From a virus: DNA of 33,183 nucleotides. Positions 22,648-33,183 of this stretch are shown here, one piece after another; positions within the stretch are counted from its first letter, which is position 1; each line of letters starts with the position of its first letter. Where the stretch lies: positions 1 through 33,183 of the IMG/VR virus record IMGVR_UViG_3300027631_001451; one strand, written 5' to 3'. The position numbers and the translations under genes were made by a program. Below the pieces are notes generated by a model. The model saw only the letters and a list, made by a program, of their open reading frames with translations, made no database searches and was not told the origin of the DNA.

Positions 22648-23898
22648 ATGGAAAGAATATACATAGAGAACAGCCATGGATTGGAAATGTTTACTATACC
22701 GCAGTTTTTAACTAACGAAGAATGTGACCATATTGTAAGGTTAACAGAGACTGGAAGTACTCGATCAAGCGTAGCCGGTACCGGAGCACAGTCTATTATT
22801 TACAACGAAGGTCGTACTAGTTCTACAGCAGTTCTACTCGACACTGAACCGGTTGTAAGTCAAGTAAACCAGAAGATGTATACAGAGTTAGGAATAGAAG
22901 CCTCTTACTCAGAACCAACTCAAGGACAGATTTACGAAGTAGGTCAAGAATTCAGGCACCACCAGGACGCTTTTGGCAAAGACGCATACCATAACCACTG
23001 TTTATCAAGTGGCCAAAGAACTTGGACATTTATGGTATACTTAAATAATGTCGAAGAAGGAGGGGAGACTGATTTTTCAGTACTACAGAAAACTATTACC
23101 CCAGTAAAAGGTACAGCAGTAGTTTGGAAGAACTCAGACGGTACAGGAAGTGAAAATCCAGCAGCACTTCACGCAGGACTACCTATTATAAAAGGTAAAA
23201 AGGTTATTATAACTAAGTGGTTTAGAGAAAATGTATTTAATAGTGCGGAAGACGCTAAATTAGCGAAAGAATACTTAGAAATGGCATTACCGGTAAAACT
23301 AGTAGAAAAAACATTTTCTAAAAAAGAAGATTTGCCAAAGTTAACGGAATTAGGGTTCAAGGTAGTTAAAGTACCTGAAAAAACCTTTCAACTTATAAAT
23401 GAAGCATATAGCTTACTAAAACACACTGTTAAAGACGAAAACTGGGACGGTATTACAAATTTCATACATGACAACCAAGGTAATGCTCCAGTTGAAATAT
23501 TTAGTATGGATGCTTTTACTCGTATAAGAGAGATTATCTCAGAAGAATTGCAACCACTCCACGAAGAATTTATAGGACATAAAGAAAAATTAATCCCTAA
23601 GTGGATTTATGGAATTAGGTCATATAAAAGAGGATCTATCTTAGTACCTCATACAGATACATTTACTACTCATCATATTTCTTCTATTGTTATAGTAGAT
23701 AAAGAAGTAGATAGAGATTGGCCTATAGATATACAAGACCATTTAGGAAGATGGCATAAAGTTTATGCAGATGTAGGAGAAATGATTTTATATGAGTCTG
23801 CTACTAATAAGCATGGCCGAATTGAACCTTTCGAAGGTGAATACTTTAGAAACTTCTTCTTACATTATACATTAGCAGATTATAAATTTGTACCTTAA
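22648..23898 (+). CDS. Tandem 2OG-Fe(II) oxygenase with prolyl 4-hydroxylase-like N-terminus
   Basis: The 416-residue protein has two complete 2-oxoglutarate/Fe(II) dioxygenase cores. Domain 1 (about 10-195) matches prolyl 4-hydroxylases: IPQFLTNEECDHIV, His105-x-Asp107 in FRHHQDAF, VYLNNVEEGGETDF, then GTAVVWKNSDG, distal His175 (ALHAGLPI) and a 2OG-binding Lys near 184-185 before TKWFRE. Domain 2 (about 235-416) has His335-x-Asp337 in VPHTDTF, distal His389 (NKHGR) and Arg401 before NFFLHY. Domain 1 would hydroxylate a peptidyl proline; domain 2 may act on another residue or on a glycan. It is followed three bases later by a gene with a hydroxyproline-type glycosyltransferase domain. DNA-base oxidation is less likely because the motifs are of P4H type, not TET/JBP type. 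Confidence 0.85.
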   Translation: MERIYIENSHGLEMFTIPQFLTNEECDHIVRLTETGSTRSSVAGTGAQSIIYNEGRTSSTAVLLDTEPVVSQVNQKMYTELGIEASYSEPTQGQIYEVGQEFRHHQDAFGKDAYHNHCLSSGQRTWTFMVYLNNVEEGGETDFSVLQKTITPVKGTAVVWKNSDGTGSENPAALHAGLPIIKGKKVIITKWFRENVFNSAEDAKLAKEYLEMALPVKLVEKTFSKKEDLPKLTELGFKVVKVPEKTFQLINEAYSLLKHTVKDENWDGITNFIHDNQGNAPVEIFSMDAFTRIREIISEELQPLHEEFIGHKEKLIPKWIYGIRSYKRGSILVPHTDTFTTHHISSIVIVDKEVDRDWPIDIQDHLGRWHKVYADVGEMILYESATNKHGRIEPFEGEYFRNFFLHYTLADYKFVP

Positions 23899-23901
23899 TA
23901 A

Positions 23902-26655
23902 ATGGACTATATTGTTGTTGGAACTAGTCGGTGTGAATACCAAGCATGGCAGATAAAGTTACTACACTGGTCATTAAAAAAAGTAAATCAAAAAGGTAAA
24001 TTAGTAGTTCTACTTTCCGGAGATTACGGACATAGACATGAAGCACCAGATTTTAGTTTTTTATCAGACGCAATAGTAATAGATCAGCCTGACTATGCAC
24101 ACCTGTGGCAAACAGCAAACGACGACTGGTGGGGTGGTATTCCTAATAAATATAGATCTGTAGAATGGTTATGTGAGAACAACTACTTTAAAGAAGAAGA
24201 TAAACTTTTATTTTTAGATCCCGATATGTTGTTTACTAAAGCAGTAGATTTCGATCTAGAAGATAATCATATAGTTGGTCAAGACTTTATACACTACATG
24301 CCACTTAAAGGATGGGAAGATCGAGATAAAGATAGTCTTAATACTAAAGGTATAATGTACCCTTTCGCTCTGAAATTTAAGACTTTAAAGAAGTTTTATA
24401 AAAAATATACAGAGTATTGTGAGCAAATACGTAAAAAAGAAGGTAGATGGGAAGCTGAAATGTGGGGATTAGATTATGCTATTAAAGATTCTAATATTAA
24501 AGTAGACCTTATACAAGATATTGGAACTTGTACAGCTTGGAATGACCGCGAAAGAACTATACTAGGAAGTATTATGCATTACCCGAATGTTATACCAGAT
24601 AAAGAAGGAAGTACATTATTTTTTAAACAAGACCATACTTTCGATCAAAAAAAGAAATACGATTTATCTAAAACAATTAGTGAAGCAGGTAATAAAATGG
24701 TTACTGGAGTTGATCAATTTAGAACAGATTATATTTACTATACAAAGTGGGATTTTGAAAATATTTTTAAATTCTATAACGGAAGTAAAGGGTATATAGT
24801 TTTTAGACCATGGCCAGGTGGTTTTAATAATATAAGGATGTCTTTAGAGCTAGCAGTCTGTATAGCTTACTTAACAAACCGAAAATTAGTACTAACCCCA
24901 GAGTATAATATGTACCTTTTACAGGGACATTCAAGCATGGAATCGTTTTTTGATACTTCTAACCTAGGAGTAATCTCTATTTCGTTTGATGACTTCTGTA
25001 AAGAGAAAGGATTAGATACTAATTACGAAAGTGTAAAAGCAGTATCGAAAGTATTAGACTACGACGCAGTAAGACATGTAATAAATTTTGAAAAAATACC
25101 AGTTCCTAATAAGTTCTCAAAATATCGTCCAATACTTAATAAAGAAGACCTCTATACAGATGAGGAATACTTATTTCTAGAATCAAACTTACTAGGAGTA
25201 ACACATCAGACCCTATTTACTAGTTTAGATGTAGAAATTAAAAAACTTATTGCAAAGTATGTCCATTATCGAACAGATATTTTTGATCTAGCTTGGCAGT
25301 TTATTAATAAGTTAGGAGATAAGGAATACTATTCAATTCATATTAGACGAAATGATTTCCAATATAAAGAGTTATTTATTCCTTGCGAACAGATCTTAGA
25401 AAATATAAAAGGTATAATTCCGCAAGGTAGTAAGTTGTATATAGCAACAGACCATAGAGATAAAGAATTCTTTAAACCATTATCAGAGCACTATCAAATA
25501 TTTTTTTACGAAGATATAAAAAAAGAAATAAGTATTTTCACCGAGTTTGATATTAACTGGGTTCCAATTATAGAACAATTTATATGTACTAGGGGTATTA
25601 AATTTATAGGTAACAGCCATTCAACACTATCTTCTTACATTTATAGAATGAGAGGATACATGTCAGATATTGAGGATAAAAACTACTACCTTAACACAGA
25701 AACATTTGAACAATATAATCAAGTACCTTTTACAGCTGATACTCAGTATAAAGGAAACTGGTTTAGAGAATATAATGATAGTTGGAGTTTCGGTAACGGG
25801 AGTATATTTGTATCAATTGCAAGCTACTGTGATTCTCAGATTATAGACACATTAAAGAGTTTATATTCAGAAGCTATAGATCCTAGTAGAGTATACGTAG
25901 GAGTTAATTTGCAGGATACAGAGGAAGCATACGAAAGACTAAAGCAACTTAACTTCCCAAATTTAAAGATAATATTTACACCTAAAGAAGAAGCAAAAGG
26001 TGTTGTATATGCTAGAAATAGAATAAAAAACGAGCTTGTAGGGAATGAAGATTACTTTTTACAAGTAGATTCACATAGTAGATTCAGACAGGCTTGGGAT
26101 GCAATCTTAATACATCAGTATAACAGTATAGAAGAAGGTAAAGTAATTTTAACCACCTACCCTAATCATTTTGATGTTCCAGATTACGAAAAAAAATATT
26201 TAGATAAGCCAAACAATACACCTTTACGTATAAGAAGGTTTTTACAAGAATCAAGTAATAACGATAATAGACATATAGCTGAAAATTTACCTACACTAGA
26301 AGACTATAAAGTAGTAGAGACTAGATGGGCTGCCGCAGGATTTTTATTTACTAGGAGAGAATGGTTAGAAGAAGTAAAGATACCGAATAATATAAGATTT
26401 AACGGAGAAGAAGATTTTCAAACATTTCTTAGCTACTTAAAAGGTTGGAATTTGAGAGTTACATCTTTAGCAACAGTATGGCATAACTACAACTTTAAAA
26501 CATCTGATACAGATGAACCGTACAGAGAGCATAATAATAAGTACTTTATAGATGATACGGCAATAGACTTAGTCAATCATTTTCTATTTAACGAAACACA
26601 TACACGAACATTAGATGATTTAGAAAGTTATTTTAATATAAAATTAAAAAGGTAA
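23902..26655 (+). CDS. Three-domain glycosyltransferase (HPAT-like, O-FucT-like, GT60-like)
   Basis: This 917-residue fusion has three glycosyltransferase domains. Residues 1 to about 265 are GT-A type: YQAWQIKLLHWSLKK, VEWLCENNYF and Asp106-Pro-Asp108 (LFLDPDMLF) resemble hydroxyproline O-arabinosyltransferase/peptidyl-serine galactosyltransferase proteins. Residues about 297-605 resemble protein O-fucosyltransferases: RPWPGGFNNIRMSLELAVC, HIRRND (480-485) and FIGNSHSTLSSYI. Residues about 633-917 match the GlcNAc-transferase family that includes Skp1-hydroxyproline GlcNAc transferase: FVSIASYCDS, VVYARNRI, FLQVDSHSRF (Asp723, His725), AAGFLF and FNGEEDFQ. The hydroxylase gene is immediately upstream, supporting action on hydroxyproline. 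The second and third domain calls are firmer than the first. Confidence 0.82.
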   Translation: MDYIVVGTSRCEYQAWQIKLLHWSLKKVNQKGKLVVLLSGDYGHRHEAPDFSFLSDAIVIDQPDYAHLWQTANDDWWGGIPNKYRSVEWLCENNYFKEEDKLLFLDPDMLFTKAVDFDLEDNHIVGQDFIHYMPLKGWEDRDKDSLNTKGIMYPFALKFKTLKKFYKKYTEYCEQIRKKEGRWEAEMWGLDYAIKDSNIKVDLIQDIGTCTAWNDRERTILGSIMHYPNVIPDKEGSTLFFKQDHTFDQKKKYDLSKTISEAGNKMVTGVDQFRTDYIYYTKWDFENIFKFYNGSKGYIVFRPWPGGFNNIRMSLELAVCIAYLTNRKLVLTPEYNMYLLQGHSSMESFFDTSNLGVISISFDDFCKEKGLDTNYESVKAVSKVLDYDAVRHVINFEKIPVPNKFSKYRPILNKEDLYTDEEYLFLESNLLGVTHQTLFTSLDVEIKKLIAKYVHYRTDIFDLAWQFINKLGDKEYYSIHIRRNDFQYKELFIPCEQILENIKGIIPQGSKLYIATDHRDKEFFKPLSEHYQIFFYEDIKKEISIFTEFDINWVPIIEQFICTRGIKFIGNSHSTLSSYIYRMRGYMSDIEDKNYYLNTETFEQYNQVPFTADTQYKGNWFREYNDSWSFGNGSIFVSIASYCDSQIIDTLKSLYSEAIDPSRVYVGVNLQDTEEAYERLKQLNFPNLKIIFTPKEEAKGVVYARNRIKNELVGNEDYFLQVDSHSRFRQAWDAILIHQYNSIEEGKVILTTYPNHFDVPDYEKKYLDKPNNTPLRIRRFLQESSNNDNRHIAENLPTLEDYKVVETRWAAAGFLFTRREWLEEVKIPNNIRFNGEEDFQTFLSYLKGWNLRVTSLATVWHNYNFKTSDTDEPYREHNNKYFIDDTAIDLVNHFLFNETHTRTLDDLESYFNIKLKR

Positions 26656-26656
26656 T

Positions 26657-28201
26657 ATGTTTAATTTAGGTTTTTTTGGATCACATAATGGTAGTTTAGC
26701 CATCTCCTTTAAAGGAAAAGTCCTAGAAGTAGTAGAACTTGAACGTTTAATTAACGTAAAGAATGCTGCTTTCTTTTATTGGGGGCATCATGATAATATA
26801 GTGGAATTATTAACAGAAATTAAAAACTACTTTAATACAAAATACGGAGTAGAAAAATACGACAACGTAATCTATAACTCAGTAGATAAAGAGATGTGGA
26901 AAATATTCCCAGCTAACAACTACCAATGGTTACCGCATCACGAAGCTCATGCTTATTCCGGACTATATCAATCTAACTACGATAAAGCATTAATTATATC
27001 CTTTGACGGAGGAAGTGACGAAGGTTTTTTTAATATTTACCTAGGAGATAAGAATAGTCAAACACCTATAGAGAAGATTTACGTAGGTAAGAAAGACTAT
27101 GCAGTATCGTACATGATGCCTTCTCATTTTATCTCGGATATAAAACAAGAATGGATATACACAGGTAATCTTATCTATGCCGGCAAACTAATGGGATTAG
27201 CTGGCTTTGGGAAAGTAGACCAGAATCTTATTCAACCTTTCAGAGATTTTTACTATTCCAATACAACAGATAATATAAGTGAAGCATTAACTCGCTTTAT
27301 GAAGATATTCAATATAGAATCGGAGCAGACACGATTAGAGGGGGATTCTGCTAAGAACTTAGCTGCTACTAATCAGTATGTGTTTGAACAGTTATTTGAA
27401 GAAGAAACAAGAAATATCCTAGAACTTTATAATAATATTCCTCTTATTATTACTGGCGGCTGTGGTTTAAATATATTACTAAATACTAAGTTAGCAGAAC
27501 AAAGAGAAACTTTCGTTACTCCTAATCCAAACGATACAGGTTTAGCAGTAGGATTAGTTTGTAGTAAAATAAAACCATATGACCCGGTGGATACAACCTA
27601 CCTAGGTCCGGAAGTTTGGGATAGAAACTTACTACCTAAAATACTATACGATAGGAAAGGTAGTAAAATAAAAATAATAGAGCTAGTACAAAAGTTAATT
27701 AACGGTGAAATTATTGGGATAGTTAGAGGTAGGTCCGAACATGGACCAAGAGCTTTAGGAAATAGAAGTATAATATGCGACCCAACAATTGGAGAAATGA
27801 AAGATACTTTAAATGCTAAAGTAAAAGGAAGGGAATACTATAGACCTTTCGCACCAGTAGTTAGATTAGAAGATATTAATAAATACTTTAACTGGAATAA
27901 AGAATCTAGATGGATGTCTTTTTGTCCTGAAGTTAAGGAAGAATATAAGAATGTACTAAAAGCTATTACCCATGTAGACGGAACAGCACGAGTACAGACA
28001 GTTACAAGAGAGCAAAATGAATTTTTATACGACCTTTTAACAGAAATGCATAACCAAAAAGGTATTGGAGTACTACTTAACACTTCTTTTAATATAGCAG
28101 GAAAACCTATCTTAAATACATATGAAGATGCTCTTTGGGTATTAGATAATAAACAAATGGATGCACTTTTATTAGAGGATTACTACATTAAAAAAACATA
28201 G
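26657..28201 (+). CDS. O-carbamoyltransferase 1 (NodU/CmcH/TobZ family)
   Basis: The 514-residue enzyme of the carbamoyltransferase family transfers a carbamoyl group from carbamoyl phosphate, through carbamoyl-adenylate, to a hydroxyl, usually on a sugar. The N-terminal Kae1-like half has the metal motif HxxxH in HHEAHAYSGLYQ and ISFDGGSDEG, then AGKLMGLAGFGK, IITGGCGLN and PNPNDTGLAVGL. The C-terminal half has SEHGPRALGNRSIIC, KVKGREYYRPFAPV, THVDGTARVQTV and LLNTSFNIAGKPI. All family blocks look intact. It starts one base after the three-domain glycosyltransferase and is paralogous to the gene at 29932, sharing these blocks with many substitutions. The acceptor is probably a sugar made or attached by the neighbouring enzymes. 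Confidence 0.92.
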   Translation: MFNLGFFGSHNGSLAISFKGKVLEVVELERLINVKNAAFFYWGHHDNIVELLTEIKNYFNTKYGVEKYDNVIYNSVDKEMWKIFPANNYQWLPHHEAHAYSGLYQSNYDKALIISFDGGSDEGFFNIYLGDKNSQTPIEKIYVGKKDYAVSYMMPSHFISDIKQEWIYTGNLIYAGKLMGLAGFGKVDQNLIQPFRDFYYSNTTDNISEALTRFMKIFNIESEQTRLEGDSAKNLAATNQYVFEQLFEEETRNILELYNNIPLIITGGCGLNILLNTKLAEQRETFVTPNPNDTGLAVGLVCSKIKPYDPVDTTYLGPEVWDRNLLPKILYDRKGSKIKIIELVQKLINGEIIGIVRGRSEHGPRALGNRSIICDPTIGEMKDTLNAKVKGREYYRPFAPVVRLEDINKYFNWNKESRWMSFCPEVKEEYKNVLKAITHVDGTARVQTVTREQNEFLYDLLTEMHNQKGIGVLLNTSFNIAGKPILNTYEDALWVLDNKQMDALLLEDYYIKKT

Positions 28202-28202
28202 T

Positions 28203-29027
28203 ATGAACTACTTAATAGGGTCTATAAAACATTGTGATAAACTTAGAATTAATAGCTGGATACAGAGTGCTTTAAAGTATTGTGATTGTAAAATCGTACT
28301 TTTAGTATTAGATCAAGAAATTCCTAATAGTTTATTAGAACTTGAAACACTAGGAATAAAATTAATACATTCTCCTACTAAGGATGAAATAGATACTAAT
28401 ATATGTAAATGGGAAAGGCATTTTAAAGCTAGAGAATTTTTAAAGACCTTAACACAGGAAGACATAGTTCTTTTAACAGATACGGTAGATGTTATTTTTC
28501 AAAAAGATCCATTTGAATGGTTTTTAAAAAACGCAACAAAAGATGTAATACTTACCTCAGAAGGTATTGAACATAAAGATGAACCTTGGAATAGAAAAGC
28601 TATTGAAATAGACCATACTGAATTTTGTAAAGAATTAGAAAATAAAGAAGTAATAAACTCAGGAATTATTTTTGGCAGACCTCACCCCGTTACAAACATA
28701 TTACTACATATGTATGTTGCTACTAGAAAACAAAATTTAGAAAGTGCTGATCAACCTGCTTTGAATGTAGCACTACTTTCTACTTTTCTAACCGATAATA
28801 TTCAGATAGTTAACAGTGATAACGGATTAGCGGTACATTGCGGAGTAGCCGGCCCTAGTGGTGTATTTTACGAATGGGGTTTCGCAGACAAATATAAGTA
28901 CGGAGTGCCAATTAAAGAAGATAATGAGATTGTAAATAAGAAGACTAAAGAAACTTTCTGTATAGTACACCAGTATAATAGGGTACAAGAATGGAAGGCA
29001 TTTTTTACAGAACTTTATAATAATTAA
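28203..29027 (+). CDS. GT-A fold glycosyltransferase
   Basis: This is a 274-residue single-domain glycosyltransferase. A Rossmann-like N-terminus (NYLIGSIKHCDKLRINSWI) leads to the nucleotide-sugar motif LLTDTVDVIFQKDPF with Asp93 and Asp96, followed by VINSGIIFGRPHPV, ADQPALNVALLS and a late His-Tyr/His pair (AVHCGV, CIVHQYNRV). The pattern resembles the glycosyltransferase domain of procollagen lysyl hydroxylases and related GT-A enzymes. It is distantly like the first domain of the 917-residue protein. It is one base after carbamoyltransferase 1 and two bases before a GT60-like gene. Donor and acceptor cannot be read from the sequence. Confidence 0.7.
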   Translation: MNYLIGSIKHCDKLRINSWIQSALKYCDCKIVLLVLDQEIPNSLLELETLGIKLIHSPTKDEIDTNICKWERHFKAREFLKTLTQEDIVLLTDTVDVIFQKDPFEWFLKNATKDVILTSEGIEHKDEPWNRKAIEIDHTEFCKELENKEVINSGIIFGRPHPVTNILLHMYVATRKQNLESADQPALNVALLSTFLTDNIQIVNSDNGLAVHCGVAGPSGVFYEWGFADKYKYGVPIKEDNEIVNKKTKETFCIVHQYNRVQEWKAFFTELYNN

Positions 29028-29029
29028 AA

Positions 29030-29935
29030 ATGGGTAATACAATTTTTATATCTATTGCTAGTTTTATAGACACAGACTTAAGGAATACAATACTAAGCTG
29101 TATTAATCAAGCTAAACACCCAGAAAATATTACTTTTGGAATAATACTACAATATAATAACGAAGAGGGGACTAATGAAACATGTATAGATGATTTAATT
29201 AATAGGTATAATATTAGAATAAAAAAATACTGGTTTGAAGAATCGAAAGGAGGTTGTTGGGCTAGAAATCAGGTAACTACTCTATACCAAAATGAAGATT
29301 ATGTACTACAGTTAGATGCTCATATTAGGATGATCAAAAACTGGGATGTACTGTTAGTTAGAGAATATTTAGAACTAAAAGAAAATAATAATAAGCCACT
29401 TCTTTCTTACCTATCACCATCATTTTTTAGAAAGGAAGAGTTAGGATTAGATTATGACTTTAAACATATAGATGATCCATATATCATAAATGTACCGACA
29501 ATAAAGTCTATCACAGGAGACTACTGGCCTATGTTTGGAGGATATGAAGATGAAGCCCATACTAATAGAAAACCTAATAACGTATCTTTATTATACGCGG
29601 GGTTTGTATTTACCCAAGGAAGTTGGCTTCTAGAAGTAAAAAACGACCCTGAACATTACTATACAGGAGAAGAATTTGCTTTATCTATACGATCATTCAC
29701 TCACGGGTATAATATTTATATACCCAGTCAGATAATGTCTTGGCATTTATCTAGACCTAATCATATACATCATTTCAAAGTATTAGATGGTAATAAAAAC
29801 CATATTAAGGCAATGGAACAACTTTATAAATTAATATTTGGAGGAGATTTAGGTGAATACGGATTAGGAACTGAAAGAACATTACAACAGTACGAAGAAT
29901 TTGCAAAAATTAATATAAAAGAAAGAAGAATATGA
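29030..29935 (+). CDS. GlcNAc-transferase family (GT60-like) glycosyltransferase
   Basis: This 301-residue protein is homologous to the C-terminal domain of the 917-residue glycosyltransferase and to Skp1-hydroxyproline GlcNAc transferase-type enzymes. Shared marks are TIFISIASFIDTDLRNTI, GGCWARNQVTTL, YVLQLDAHIRM with Asp96 and His98 as the metal motif, a YAGFVFTQGSWL stretch, YYTGEEFALSIRSFTHGYNI, and a late MSWHLSR. The length is close to that single domain alone. It overlaps carbamoyltransferase 2 by four bases (ATGA). The arrangement glycosyltransferase then carbamoyltransferase occurs twice in the cluster. It could act on hydroxyproline or extend the glycan begun there. Confidence 0.8.
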   Translation: MGNTIFISIASFIDTDLRNTILSCINQAKHPENITFGIILQYNNEEGTNETCIDDLINRYNIRIKKYWFEESKGGCWARNQVTTLYQNEDYVLQLDAHIRMIKNWDVLLVREYLELKENNNKPLLSYLSPSFFRKEELGLDYDFKHIDDPYIINVPTIKSITGDYWPMFGGYEDEAHTNRKPNNVSLLYAGFVFTQGSWLLEVKNDPEHYYTGEEFALSIRSFTHGYNIYIPSQIMSWHLSRPNHIHHFKVLDGNKNHIKAMEQLYKLIFGGDLGEYGLGTERTLQQYEEFAKINIKERRI

Positions 29936-31503
29936 ACATACTAAGTGTGTTTTTAGGACACAATGCATCAATGACCATTTCAAAAGATGGAGAGATATTA
30001 GAAGTCTTAGAATTCGAAAGACTCACTAATGTTAAAAATGGTGGTTGTTTAGCTCAAGTAGGAGTTAAAGATCCTAAAACTATTATGACATTAATTAAAG
30101 ATTACCTAATGGTAAGATTTGGAGTAAAGCATTTTGACTTACTACTTCTTAATCAGATAGATCTTTCATTTCTAAGAAAACAACATTTTACTACAGATAC
30201 AGAATTATTAAAATTCTTTAATGCAGAAAGATATGAATTAGTTAATCACCAGCATGGACATATGGCCTGCGCTTTTTACCAATCATCATACAACACTATA
30301 AGAGGATGTAGCTTTGATGGCGGCGGTAATGATGGAAATTTTAATATATTTGACTGTTCTAGAGAAAATGGAGTTAGACAAATAGCACAAATACCTAATC
30401 ATTCTTTAGGAATGAGATTAGCTGAACTAGGTCAGTACACTAAATCGTTAAGAAGAGAAAGAGACTTTTGGACAGACGGAGGCTTAGTATACCCAGGCAA
30501 ACTTATGGGATTATCATCTTACGGTAAAGTAGTAGATGAATGGCTCCTAGCATTTGAAGAATTCTATACAGGAGTGTACCACTCTAGCGACCTACATGCT
30601 AACTACAAAAGATTAAAAGAAAAATTAGACTTACCTGACGAGTACGAAGGAGAACTAGAAGTTAACTTAGTAGCTACTTCCCAAAGAATGTTTGAAGAAA
30701 AATTTGATAAATTAGTAAGACCTTATTTTGAAAATCAGAATTCATTTATAATCACCGGAGGATCAGCTTTAAATATAATTAATAATCAACGTTTATCTAA
30801 AGAAAGACAAATATTTGTTCCACCTAATCCAAGTGATTGTGGTTTATCTTTAGGGTTTATGTTAGATTATTTAAAACCTAAGACTGCATTTAACGGAACT
30901 TATTTAGGACCTGAAGTTTGGGATAAAGCAATGTTAACTGAGTACGTAGAAAAGTATAATGGTAAGAAGTATAGTTTTGATGATATTATTCCGGACCTGA
31001 TAGCAGGAAAAATTATAGGAGTAGTACGTAAAGGATCAGAACTAGGACCAAGAGCGTTAGGTAACAGGAGTATAATATGTCACGCTGCAATACCGGGTAT
31101 GAAAGATATCTTAAATGCAAAGGTAAAGAATAGGGAAGCATATAGACCATTTGCTCCTGTATGCCGACTAGAAGACTCTTACCAGTATTTTGATATTAAA
31201 AATACAGATAATAAATGGATGTCATTCTGCCCTGATGTAAGACCAGAATACAAAGGTATATTATCATCAGCAACACATATTGACGGAACAGCTCGATTAC
31301 AGACAGTAACTCAGTCGCAAAATGACTGGTTATACTACTTACTAACTAGATTTAAAGATTTTAACCCTCACCCGGTGTTATTAAATACATCTTTTAATAT
31401 AGCAGGTAAGCCAATCTTAAACAGTTATCGAGATGCTATATGGATGTTAGAGAATACTCAAATGGATGGATTAATATTAGAAGATTATTATATAAAAAAA
31501 TAA
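29932..31503 (+). CDS. O-carbamoyltransferase 2 (NodU/CmcH/TobZ family)
   Basis: This 523-residue paralogue of carbamoyltransferase 1 is also apparently complete. The metal motif is HxxxH within NHQHGHMACAFYQSSY, followed by SFDGGGNDGNF, PGKLMGLSSYGK, IITGGSALN, PNPSDCGLSLGF, SELGPRALGNRSIIC, KVKNREAYRPFAPV, THIDGTARLQTV and LLNTSFNIAGKPI. The ATG lies inside the preceding gene's stop region (ATGA), so the two are translationally coupled. Two copies differing along the whole length suggest two carbamoylated positions or two sugar acceptors rather than a recent duplication. GDP-mannose epimerase follows four bases later. Confidence 0.92.
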   Translation: MNILSVFLGHNASMTISKDGEILEVLEFERLTNVKNGGCLAQVGVKDPKTIMTLIKDYLMVRFGVKHFDLLLLNQIDLSFLRKQHFTTDTELLKFFNAERYELVNHQHGHMACAFYQSSYNTIRGCSFDGGGNDGNFNIFDCSRENGVRQIAQIPNHSLGMRLAELGQYTKSLRRERDFWTDGGLVYPGKLMGLSSYGKVVDEWLLAFEEFYTGVYHSSDLHANYKRLKEKLDLPDEYEGELEVNLVATSQRMFEEKFDKLVRPYFENQNSFIITGGSALNIINNQRLSKERQIFVPPNPSDCGLSLGFMLDYLKPKTAFNGTYLGPEVWDKAMLTEYVEKYNGKKYSFDDIIPDLIAGKIIGVVRKGSELGPRALGNRSIICHAAIPGMKDILNAKVKNREAYRPFAPVCRLEDSYQYFDIKNTDNKWMSFCPDVRPEYKGILSSATHIDGTARLQTVTQSQNDWLYYLLTRFKDFNPHPVLLNTSFNIAGKPILNSYRDAIWMLENTQMDGLILEDYYIKK

Positions 31504-31507
31504 ACAT

Positions 31508-32479
31508 ATGAAAACAGCATTAGTACTAGGTGCCGGAGGTTTTATTGGTTCACATTTAGTTACAAGATTAAAATCAGAAGGGTACTGGATAAGAGGAGTA
31601 GATATTAAATACCCAGACTTTTCACATTCTACAGCAGATGACTTTGTTATAGCTGATTTAAGAGACCCGTTAAAAACATCTGTAGTTATGTATGCACCAG
31701 ACAGTAAACCTTTTGATGAAGTTTACCAATTAGCAGCAGATATGGGAGGAGCAGGTTATATTAATACTGGAGATCATGATGCGGATGTGGTTCATAACTC
31801 AATGTTGATAAATCTTAATGTATTAAACGAAGCACATAAGAAAAATGTAAAAAAGATATTTTATGCATCATCTGCCTGTGTTTATAACGAACATAACCAG
31901 TTAAATCCTGAAAATCCAAACTGTAAAGAAGATTCTGTATACCCTGCACAACCAGATTCGGAATATGGGTGGGAAAAACTATTTTCTGAACGATTATATG
32001 CAACATATAACCGAAATTACGGTGTAGATATAAGAGTTGCTCGTTTCCATAATATATTTGGACCAGAAGGTACTTTTGATGGAGGTAAAGAGAAAGCACC
32101 CGCAGCAATCTGCCGTAAAGTATCAGAATCGCTAGCAAATAGTGAAATAGAGGTATGGGGAGATGGATTACAAACTCGATCATTCCTTTATATAGATGAA
32201 GCTATAGAAGGTGTCCGTCGATTAATGAATTCTGAATATAAAGAACCTATTAACATAGGTAGTGATGAAATGGTTTCAATAAACCAACTAGCCGAATGGA
32301 CAATTGAAATAAGCGGTAAAATGATAGGTATTAAAAATATTCCTGGTCCTCAAGGAGTGAGAGGTAGAACATCTGATAACACTTTAATAAAAGAGAAGTT
32401 AGGTTGGGCACCATCACAACCCTTGCATGTAGGTTTAACTGAAACTTATAAATGGATAGCTAGTAAAATAGAGTCTTAA
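31508..32479 (+). CDS. GDP-mannose 3,5-epimerase
   Basis: This 323-residue extended SDR enzyme is very like plant GDP-mannose 3,5-epimerase, which converts GDP-D-mannose to GDP-L-galactose (and GDP-L-gulose). It has the Rossmann motif GAGGFIGSH (8-16), QLAADMGGAGYI, ASSACVY, SEYGWEKL, RFHNIFGPEGT, EKAPAAICRK, EVWGDGLQTRSF, NIGSDEMVSI and GVRGRTSDNTLIKEKLGWAP. The residues I recall as catalytic in Arabidopsis GME (Cys145, Tyr174, Lys178, Lys217, Arg306) align at a constant offset of 21 as Cys124, Tyr153, Lys157, Lys196 and Arg285. It ends the glycan operon and would supply a GDP-L-sugar donor, plausibly for the O-fucosyltransferase-like domain upstream. Confidence 0.92.
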   Translation: MKTALVLGAGGFIGSHLVTRLKSEGYWIRGVDIKYPDFSHSTADDFVIADLRDPLKTSVVMYAPDSKPFDEVYQLAADMGGAGYINTGDHDADVVHNSMLINLNVLNEAHKKNVKKIFYASSACVYNEHNQLNPENPNCKEDSVYPAQPDSEYGWEKLFSERLYATYNRNYGVDIRVARFHNIFGPEGTFDGGKEKAPAAICRKVSESLANSEIEVWGDGLQTRSFLYIDEAIEGVRRLMNSEYKEPINIGSDEMVSINQLAEWTIEISGKMIGIKNIPGPQGVRGRTSDNTLIKEKLGWAPSQPLHVGLTETYKWIASKIES

Positions 32480-32516: not shown

Positions 32517-33183
32517 ATGCCAAGTTATCAGTTCCCCAATACGAGTAGTGGTATAAATGTTGACGATCACTTAAATGATTTTCTTGTTGAAAATGATTTA
32601 CTGGGTCTGCATTCACATGTCTGGCCAGCTAGACAGGGCTTTTATACAGTCGAAGACGATATGGATCATTTTCGCGGTAAATGGGGTTTTTACTTTAACG
32701 CATACGTAACAGGATCAGATACAAACGGTTCTGCAATAATGTTCCCATCAGGCGCTTTAAGGTTTACTGGACCAGCTTTTACTTCTTCCTACGCACAAGA
32801 ATACCAAGGCGGTATAACAGGATCTAAGAAAGTATTTCTTTATGACCCCTACCCCTCTGCAAGCTTTTCCGCTACAGGTTCAGCTGGATTTGTATTAGTT
32901 AGATGGGCTAGCGGTAATCAAGATAATAGACCACTTATTCAAGGGTATTCAAACTCAAATGCAACTTATTCTACTAATAACGATATAACAGTTCCGTACA
33001 GTAGTAGTATTAATACATTATATGCGGTCTTTGAAAGAGATTGTACATTAGATATAACTGGAGCAGAATGTGATATTAGATTTACTGCATTACAACTAAC
33101 ACCGGCACCTACTCCTGCACCAACAGCAGCTCCGACTGCCGCTCCGACTGCCGCTCCTGTAACACCTGCACCAACAGCAGCTC
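32517..33183 (+). CDS. Probable virion protein with Pro/Thr/Ala-rich repeats (3' end cut by window edge)
   Basis: The frame is open from ATG 32517 to the window end (222 codons, no stop). Residues 1-194 look like a folded beta-rich domain, with GKWGFYFNAYVTGSDTNGSA, GFVLVRWASGNQDNRP and two Cys at DCTLDITGAECDI. From residue 195 the protein becomes TPAPTPAPTAAPTAAPTAAP-like, with nine prolines in 28 residues. No homologue is recognised. The upstream TATTTATA element fits a late structural gene, perhaps a fibre or surface-exposed protein. It is the first gene after the hydroxylase/glycosyltransferase operon, and AP/TP dipeptides are the kind of sites hydroxylated and glycosylated in plant arabinogalactan proteins, so it is a candidate target. 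Confidence 0.75.
   Translation, partial: MPSYQFPNTSSGINVDDHLNDFLVENDLLGLHSHVWPARQGFYTVEDDMDHFRGKWGFYFNAYVTGSDTNGSAIMFPSGALRFTGPAFTSSYAQEYQGGITGSKKVFLYDPYPSASFSATGSAGFVLVRWASGNQDNRPLIQGYSNSNATYSTNNDITVPYSSSINTLYAVFERDCTLDITGAECDIRFTALQLTPAPTPAPTAAPTAAPTAAPVTPAPTAA
33099..33183 (+). repeat. Pro/Thr/Ala-coding tandem repeat
   Basis: An identical 19-base segment occurs at 33114-33132 and 33165-33183, giving a 51-base (17-codon) period. Inside it lies a 12-base unit encoding PTAA in near-perfect copies. The repeat continues past the window end. Confidence 0.85.

What the first reader, a model, noticed from the sequence alone, without database searches (positions are those of the whole stretch)
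32517..33183. Pro/Thr/Ala repeat protein beside the operon as candidate glycan acceptor
A late-type gene directly after the modification operon encodes a folded domain followed by AP/TP dipeptides in a 17-residue period, similar in composition to plant arabinogalactan glycomodules that carry hydroxyproline-linked glycans. It was missed by a simple start-to-stop search because it runs off the window. A glycosylated, carbamoylated stalk on the virion could shield it or mediate binding.
Basis: inference. Interest (0 to 1): 0.72.

Follow-up and report, generated by a model that had tools for sequence, protein, structure and literature searches.

The report
Phage proline-rich protein beside hydroxyproline-glycosylation genes
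A phage carries a long proline/threonine/alanine-repeat protein next to genes resembling those plants and algae use to hydroxylate prolines and attach sugars to them, and these parts recur together in many unrelated phages, which suggests (but does not yet prove) that phages build sugar-coated, plant-cell-wall-like fibres.

Summary
The ORF at 32517-33183 is real and cut by the contig end. Complete relatives encode 739-966 residues: a conserved N-terminal domain, then hundreds of TPAP/TAAP/VTPAP/TPSP residues broken by Cys-rich mini-domains, plus two further TP/AP-rich genes. The '17-residue period' is not general (main lags 4, 5, 13).

The upstream enzyme is a tandem 2OG dioxygenase whose first half matches prolyl 4-hydroxylases (best fold match: algal P4H with a (Ser-Pro)5 peptide). 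The next protein's N-terminal domain belongs, by its orthologs, to Pfam HPAT (hydroxyproline O-arabinosyltransferase), fused to O-FucT and GT60 domains; GT60 includes the Skp1 hydroxyproline GlcNAc-transferases. Of 26 non-redundant P4H loci with flanks, 18 hold an XP-repeat ORF (11 abutting; 9% for other genes). Of 65 loci anchored on HPAT, 61 hold P4H and 56 an XP-repeat ORF. Controls: GT4 loci 0/80; P4H-lacking relatives 0/55; HPAT 0/48. A relative with GT60s but no P4H has no repeat protein.

Best reading: a phage hydroxyproline-O-glycosylation system acting on its own repeat protein, probably a virion fibre. Nothing biochemical is shown.

The parts
32517..33183 (+). XP-repeat stalk protein, truncated by the contig end: N-terminal domain 32517-33098 (194 aa), start of the TP/AP repeat 33099-33183
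   Evidence: complete in L005-L007
22648..23898 (+). tandem 2OG-Fe(II) dioxygenase: first half prolyl 4-hydroxylase, second half another 2OG domain
   Evidence: PF13640 E 2.7e-16; P4H structures by sequence E ~2e-24; AF2 pLDDT 91, best PDB match algal P4H with (Ser-Pro)5, 3gze, E 3e-17; both HxD...H sets invariant in 36/36 non-redundant relatives
23902..26655 (+). three-domain glycosyltransferase: HPAT-type (about 23920-24558), O-fucosyltransferase-type (24793-25662), GT60/Gnt1-type PF11397 (25939-26499)
   Evidence: HPAT below cut-off in the window (E 0.0018), above it in orthologs (best E 5.8e-12)
26657..28201 (+). O-carbamoyltransferase 1 (TobZ/GdmN/NodU-like)
28203..29027 (+). PF03407 (Nucleotid_trans, GT77-type) glycosyltransferase; absent in some relatives (L005, L006)
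29030..29935 (+). stand-alone GT60/Gnt1-type glycosyltransferase (PF11397)
   Evidence: E 2.2e-43
29932..31503 (+). O-carbamoyltransferase 2
31508..32479 (+). GDP-mannose-3,5-epimerase-like sugar-nucleotide epimerase
   Evidence: plant GME 2c59, E 1.2e-95

Best explanation
This is the start of a long XP-repeat protein that is the substrate of a phage-encoded hydroxyproline-O-glycosylation pathway. Proposed steps: (1) the tandem dioxygenase hydroxylates prolines in [A/T/S/V]-Pro repeats; (2) the HPAT-type domain next to it, and/or the GT60 domains, attach the first sugar to hydroxyproline, and GT60 may also use Thr; (3) the O-FucT-type domain, possibly fed with GDP-L-galactose by the GDP-mannose-3,5-epimerase, and the PF03407 enzyme extend the glycan; (4) the two carbamoyltransferases cap sugars. 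The product would be an extended, sugar-coated polyproline-type rod with Cys-rich beads, most likely a virion fibre or surface stalk. Shown here: sequences, domain families, conserved catalytic residues, conserved gene association. Inferred: every catalytic step, sugar identity, and virion location.
For: P4H anchor: of 36 non-redundant P4H loci, 26 have >=3 kb on both sides; 18 of these hold an XP-repeat ORF and 11 abut one (<=100 bp), against 9% of other genes in the same loci, 0/10,000 permutations. HPAT anchor: 61/65 loci with P4H, 56/65 with an XP-repeat ORF, several of the rest being contigs too short to judge. Controls: GT4 loci 0/80 and NrdB loci lacking P4H 0/55 on the sense strand; single-domain bacterial P4H loci 1/48; HPAT 0/48 in records lacking this P4H. 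Whole records in the same phage group: tract in 7/7 with P4H, 2/43 without (single matches). L234 keeps GT60s and an epimerase but lacks P4H and the repeat protein. Immutovirus lacks the operon and the stalk. The repeat gene moves (upstream of P4H in L047, L048, L130 and the marine group; downstream in the window group), so linkage is not mere synteny. 46-49% of repeat prolines fit the plant P4H motif quoted in PMC7960765, against 1.5% in other window proteins. GT60 loci without P4H carry Thr-rich tracts (median T+S per P 1.79, against 0.72 with P4H; p 5e-12), as expected if the acceptor shifts from Thr to Hyp. Fold and catalytic residues. Virion context in relatives: the repeat gene and P4H lie among virion structural genes (phrog_14478 E 7e-236) or after a Peptidase_S74 tail fibre.
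Against: No hydroxyproline or glycan has been measured. HPAT in the window itself is below Pfam's cut-off (18.1 against 23.9 bits) and several P4H records give no match to the Pfam HPAT model. Two P4H records lack an XP tract: G051 (52 kb; HPAT present) and G053 (41 kb; HPAT and GT60 present), both partial. In the window's own group the stalk gene lies after NrdA, outside the tail module, so its virion location is weaker there. P4H loci share descent, so counts are not independent. A published attempt found no hydroxyproline in virions of PBCV-1, which also encodes a P4H (PMC7019647).
Confidence: 0.68

Rival explanations
1. The repeat is hydroxylated but not glycosylated: hydroxyproline only stiffens a polyproline-II stalk, and the transferases and carbamoyltransferases modify something else (capsid, lipopolysaccharide, DNA).
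For: In many marine relatives P4H abuts the repeat gene while the HPAT-FucT-GT60 fusion is not detected. L048's repeat protein ends in a collagen-like GPP run.
Against: Those relatives often carry a stand-alone HPAT-type transferase just downstream; 61/65 HPAT loci have P4H. GT60 loci without P4H are also tied to Thr-Pro-rich ORFs (35/69 against 0/80).
Confidence: 0.12
2. Mucin-type route: GT60 glycosylates Thr/Ser of the repeat; P4H and HPAT domains act on a different protein.
For: GT60 includes Thr-modifying mucin-type enzymes (PMC8724618). 35/69 GT60 loci without P4H carry TPTPTP or TPSITPS ORFs.
Against: Within the window's group the repeat protein follows P4H, not GT60 (L234, L218). Tracts with P4H have far less Thr/Ser per Pro.
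Confidence: 0.1
3. Unmodified low-complexity spacer; the association reflects hot spots where phages swap surface genes.
For: Pro-rich linkers are common in secreted proteins (general knowledge); bacterial tandem-P4H loci have plain TPTPTP linkers in 12/32.
Against: Abutment far above other genes in the same loci; empty control with another glycosyltransferase; synonymous-codon mixing shows protein-level selection; 30-fold enrichment of plant-P4H motifs.
Confidence: 0.07

Closest known systems
Plant and green-algal hydroxyproline-rich glycoproteins (arabinogalactan proteins, extensins) with P4H and HPAT
   Same: P4H of the algal fold (3gze, E 3e-17); HPAT-family transferase; clustered non-contiguous [AST]-Pro repeats fitting the plant P4H motif; PF03407 and GDP-mannose-3,5-epimerase enzymes
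   Different: phage-encoded, no signal peptide seen by eye, presumably cytosolic; enzymes fused (HPAT-FucT-GT60); second 2OG domain; carbamoyltransferases; no plant-AGP-type galactosyltransferase recognised
Skp1 hydroxyproline glycosylation of Dictyostelium and Toxoplasma (P4H, then Gnt1 of GT60, then a Gal/Fuc transferase; GT77 AgtA in Dictyostelium)
   Same: cytosolic-type P4H plus GT60 transferases, fucosyltransferase-type domain and a PF03407 (GT77-type) enzyme; fusions are common there too (PMC8724618, PMC6939170)
   Different: one proline in Skp1 against more than a hundred here; target is a repeat protein; HPAT and carbamoyltransferases added
Chlorella virus PBCV-1 prolyl 4-hydroxylase
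   Same: virus-encoded P4H of the same fold (5c5t, E 8.5e-14); described as active on Pro-containing peptides (PMC7019647)
   Different: single domain, not reported in a glycosylation operon beside its substrate; hydroxyproline was not detected in virions
Cyanophage S-SCSM1 2OG/O-FucT/carbamoyltransferase cluster
   Same: 2OG, O-FucT, second 2OG domain and carbamoyltransferase genes together with GDP-fucose synthesis genes
   Different: domains on separate genes, no HPAT, no XP-repeat gene beside it

Membership tests
Prolyl 4-hydroxylase (2OG-Fe(II) dioxygenase) | double-stranded beta-helix fold with HxD...H iron site and 2OG-binding Lys | tested here: met
   PF13640 E 2.7e-16; P4H PDB hits; H105, D107, H175, K185 invariant in 36/36
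Prolyl 4-hydroxylase (2OG-Fe(II) dioxygenase) | hydroxylates peptidyl proline | not testable with these tools
   needs an enzyme assay
HPAT (PF23452, hydroxyproline O-arabinosyltransferase family) | match to the family model above its cut-off | tested here: inconclusive
   window domain 18.1 bits, E 0.0018, below the 23.9 cut-off; 7 of 9 orthologs match and several exceed the cut-off; 0/48 in control phages
HPAT (PF23452, hydroxyproline O-arabinosyltransferase family) | transfers L-arabinose to hydroxyproline | not testable with these tools
   donor and acceptor unknown; no arabinose pathway recognised in the window
GT60 / Skp1 Gnt1 family (PF11397) | match to the family model | tested here: met
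   149.5 and 129.8 bits against cut-off 21
Skp1-type hydroxyproline glycosylation pathway | Skp1 as target, single hydroxylated proline | tested here: not met
   candidate target is an XP-repeat protein with many prolines; no Skp1 recognised in the window
Hydroxyproline-rich glycoprotein / arabinogalactan-like glycomodule | clustered, non-contiguous [ASTV]-Pro repeats in P4H-recognised context | tested here: met
   46-49% of repeat prolines in the plant motif against 1.5% elsewhere; 0-2 PP per protein
Hydroxyproline-rich glycoprotein / arabinogalactan-like glycomodule | hydroxyproline present and O-glycosylated | not testable with these tools
   needs mass spectrometry
GDP-mannose-3,5-epimerase | full-length similarity to GME above other short-chain dehydrogenases | tested here: met
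   GME 2c59 E 1.2e-95, next family 2e-25
Phage tail fibre / virion structural protein | present in virions | not testable with these tools
   relatives place the repeat gene among structural genes; no proteomics at hand

The most novel reading that the evidence does not exclude
Diverse phages of aquatic bacteria carry a self-contained hydroxyproline-O-glycosylation system (tandem P4H, HPAT-type and/or GT60 transferases, capping enzymes) dedicated to their own XP-repeat fibre proteins, making virions with plant-cell-wall-like glycoprotein rods; this would be a route of protein modification not described for phages in the papers searched here, and may bear on where the eukaryotic hydroxyproline glycosylation enzymes come from.
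Probability: 0.55. Interest if true: 0.9.

Novelty: new variant of a known kind. Interest (0 to 1): 0.8.

Why it matters
Prolyl 4-hydroxylase was among the more abundant virus-borne metabolic genes in Baltic Sea water, and how viruses use it 'remains cryptic' (PMC9301287). Here a substrate is named: the adjacent XP-repeat protein, with a hydroxyproline-type glycosyltransferase beside it. The prediction is directly testable by mass spectrometry.

Tried and rejected
N-terminal stalk domain: AlphaFold with 11 sequences gave pLDDT 37, so no fold search was done; Pfam, PHROGs, PDB and INPHARED searches found no credible relative. 17-residue period: rejected. T4-late promoter: rejected. Apparent exception L143 (172 kb record) was withdrawn: the narrow DNA pattern had missed its TAPPTTAPTVAPT proteins. 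L134, L139, L146, L018 and L022 lack the repeat ORF but their contigs end too early to judge. GT60 alone as driver of the repeat gene was rejected for this phage group (L234, L218), though GT60-only loci elsewhere do carry Thr-Pro tracts. XacN1 and RAS14 (GT60 plus carbamoyltransferase, many TP tracts) lack this P4H near their GT60 genes and lack HPAT, so they are not filed as members. Literature searches for a phage hydroxyproline-glycosylation system found none in the held library.

Full report
What is there. The window is a complete IMG/VR record of 33,183 bases from a T4-like phage: tail sheath at its start, then, from sequence and synteny with Immutovirus, tube, tape measure, RecA/UvsX-type recombinase, helicase and ribonucleotide reductase. 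The sheath's closest cultured relative is Flavobacterium phage Immutovirus immuto (65% identity), so a Bacteroidota host is likely (inference). The ORF at 32517 follows the seven-gene enzyme stretch 22648-32479 and is open at the contig end. Eight relatives were found. L005, L006 and L007 hold the complete gene (739, 966, 875 aa): N-terminal domain, long TP/AP/SP/VTP blocks, Cys-rich mini-domains, and a Cys-rich C-terminus. L006 and L007 have two further TP/AP-rich genes right after it (about 250 aa each). The repeat is protein-level: synonymous codons are mixed and Pro is isolated; main lags are 4, 5 and 13.

What the operon encodes. The first enzyme has two 2OG-Fe(II) domains. The first half hits P4H structures by sequence (E about 2e-24). 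The AlphaFold model (35 sequences, pLDDT 91) matches best the algal P4H solved with a (Ser-Pro)5 peptide (3gze, E 3e-17). All iron-binding residues of both halves are invariant in 36 non-redundant relatives, as is the 2OG-binding Lys of the first half; the equivalent Arg of the second is kept in 35. The second protein (917 aa) has an N-terminal domain that 7 of 9 orthologs assign to Pfam HPAT, hydroxyproline O-arabinosyltransferase (best E 5.8e-12; the window copy alone E 0.0018, under the cut-off), then O-FucT and PF11397 domains. PF11397 recurs as a separate gene. By general knowledge of Pfam and CAZy it is the Skp1 Gnt1 / GT60 family; GT60 includes Skp1 hydroxyproline GlcNAc-transferases and mucin-type Thr transferases (PMC6939170, PMC8724618). 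The last enzyme is a GDP-mannose-3,5-epimerase (E 1.2e-95 to plant GME). Two carbamoyltransferases resemble TobZ and GdmN.

Does the repeat protein go with P4H? Anchoring on P4H gave 57 further loci, 41 with an XP-repeat ORF. After reduction to 36 clusters, 26 have at least 3 kb on both sides; 18 of these have the ORF and 11 abut it within 100 bp, against 9% of other genes in the same loci (0/10,000 permutations). The repeat proteins differ greatly (TPAP, PTPPTPP, TPVPVP, GPSPTPGPSP), and lie before or after P4H. Anchoring on the stand-alone HPAT-type transferase gave 65 loci: 61 with P4H, 56 with an XP-repeat ORF. Controls: 80 loci of another phage glycosyltransferase (GT4), none on the sense strand; 55 NrdB loci of the same phage group without P4H, none; single-domain P4H in bacteria, 1 of 48; HPAT in 48 phage records without this P4H, none. 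Whole-record searches in the phage group: tract in 7/7 with P4H and 2/43 without, the two being single matches.

Natural experiments. Immutovirus has NrdA and the following genes but no P4H, GT60, carbamoyltransferase, stalk domain or TP/AP-rich gene of this kind. L234 has GT60 genes and an epimerase at the same place but neither P4H nor the repeat protein, and runs straight into the gene that follows the repeat genes in L006. So here the repeat protein tracks P4H rather than GT60. Elsewhere, GT60 loci without P4H carry Thr-rich TP tracts (35/69), with 1.79 Thr+Ser per Pro against 0.72 in P4H loci (p 5e-12). This suggests two modes: Thr-linked without P4H, hydroxyproline-linked with it (inference).

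Virion or not. In marine relatives the repeat gene and P4H lie among virion structural genes (phrog_14478, phrog_13764). In L048 the repeat gene follows a Peptidase_S74 tail fibre. In the window's group the gene lies after NrdA, and neighbours further on look exported (C-type lectin, cohesin), so the virion assignment is an inference there. No signal peptide is apparent at MPSYQFPNTG by eye.

Weak points. Thresholds for XP tracts were set after seeing a clearly bimodal distribution. P4H loci share ancestry (tree). Two partial records with P4H lack a tract (G051, G053). Bacterial tandem-P4H loci show TPTPTP ORFs in only 12 of 32 within 8 kb. Hydroxyproline was not found in PBCV-1 virions although that virus encodes a P4H. 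No chemistry is shown here.

Noticed in passing
L342-L373 (bacterial genomes): The two-domain P4H also occurs in marine Gammaproteobacteria and a few other bacteria; 12 of 32 loci have a TPTPTP-linker ORF within 8 kb, some abutting (L364, L368).
   Followed up: partly
L050-L118: GT60-family loci without P4H carry Thr-Pro-rich, mucin-like ORFs in 35 of 69 cases, against 0 of 80 for a GT4 control: a possible phage mucin-type O-glycosylation system.
   Followed up: partly
L035 (XacN1) and L036 (RAS14): Jumbo phages with adjacent GT60 and carbamoyltransferase genes and many TP tracts across the genome, with no P4H of this family near them.
   Followed up: partly
L254, 3261-5678 and 6380-10564: Cyanophage S-SCSM1 has the same kit on separate genes: 2OG, O-FucT, second 2OG domain, carbamoyltransferase, GDP-mannose dehydratase, GDP-fucose synthase.
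   Followed up: no
L121, 4170-5388 and 5397-7803: P4H and GT60 reading frames are broken in this record (two pieces each), while the TP-rich stalk is intact: decay or sequencing error.
   Followed up: no
L121, 10375-11550: TP-rich protein whose C-terminus looks by eye like a Hint (hedgehog/intein) autoproteolytic domain; Pfam gave no match.
   Followed up: no
L006, 14811-19940: Genes after the repeat proteins encode C-type lectin and cohesin-type proteins that look exported or lipoprotein-like; Immutovirus has lectin and cohesin genes after NrdA too.
   Followed up: no
L048, 4421-5974: The repeat protein ends in a collagen-like GPPGPPGPPGPPG run, another typical P4H substrate.
   Followed up: no
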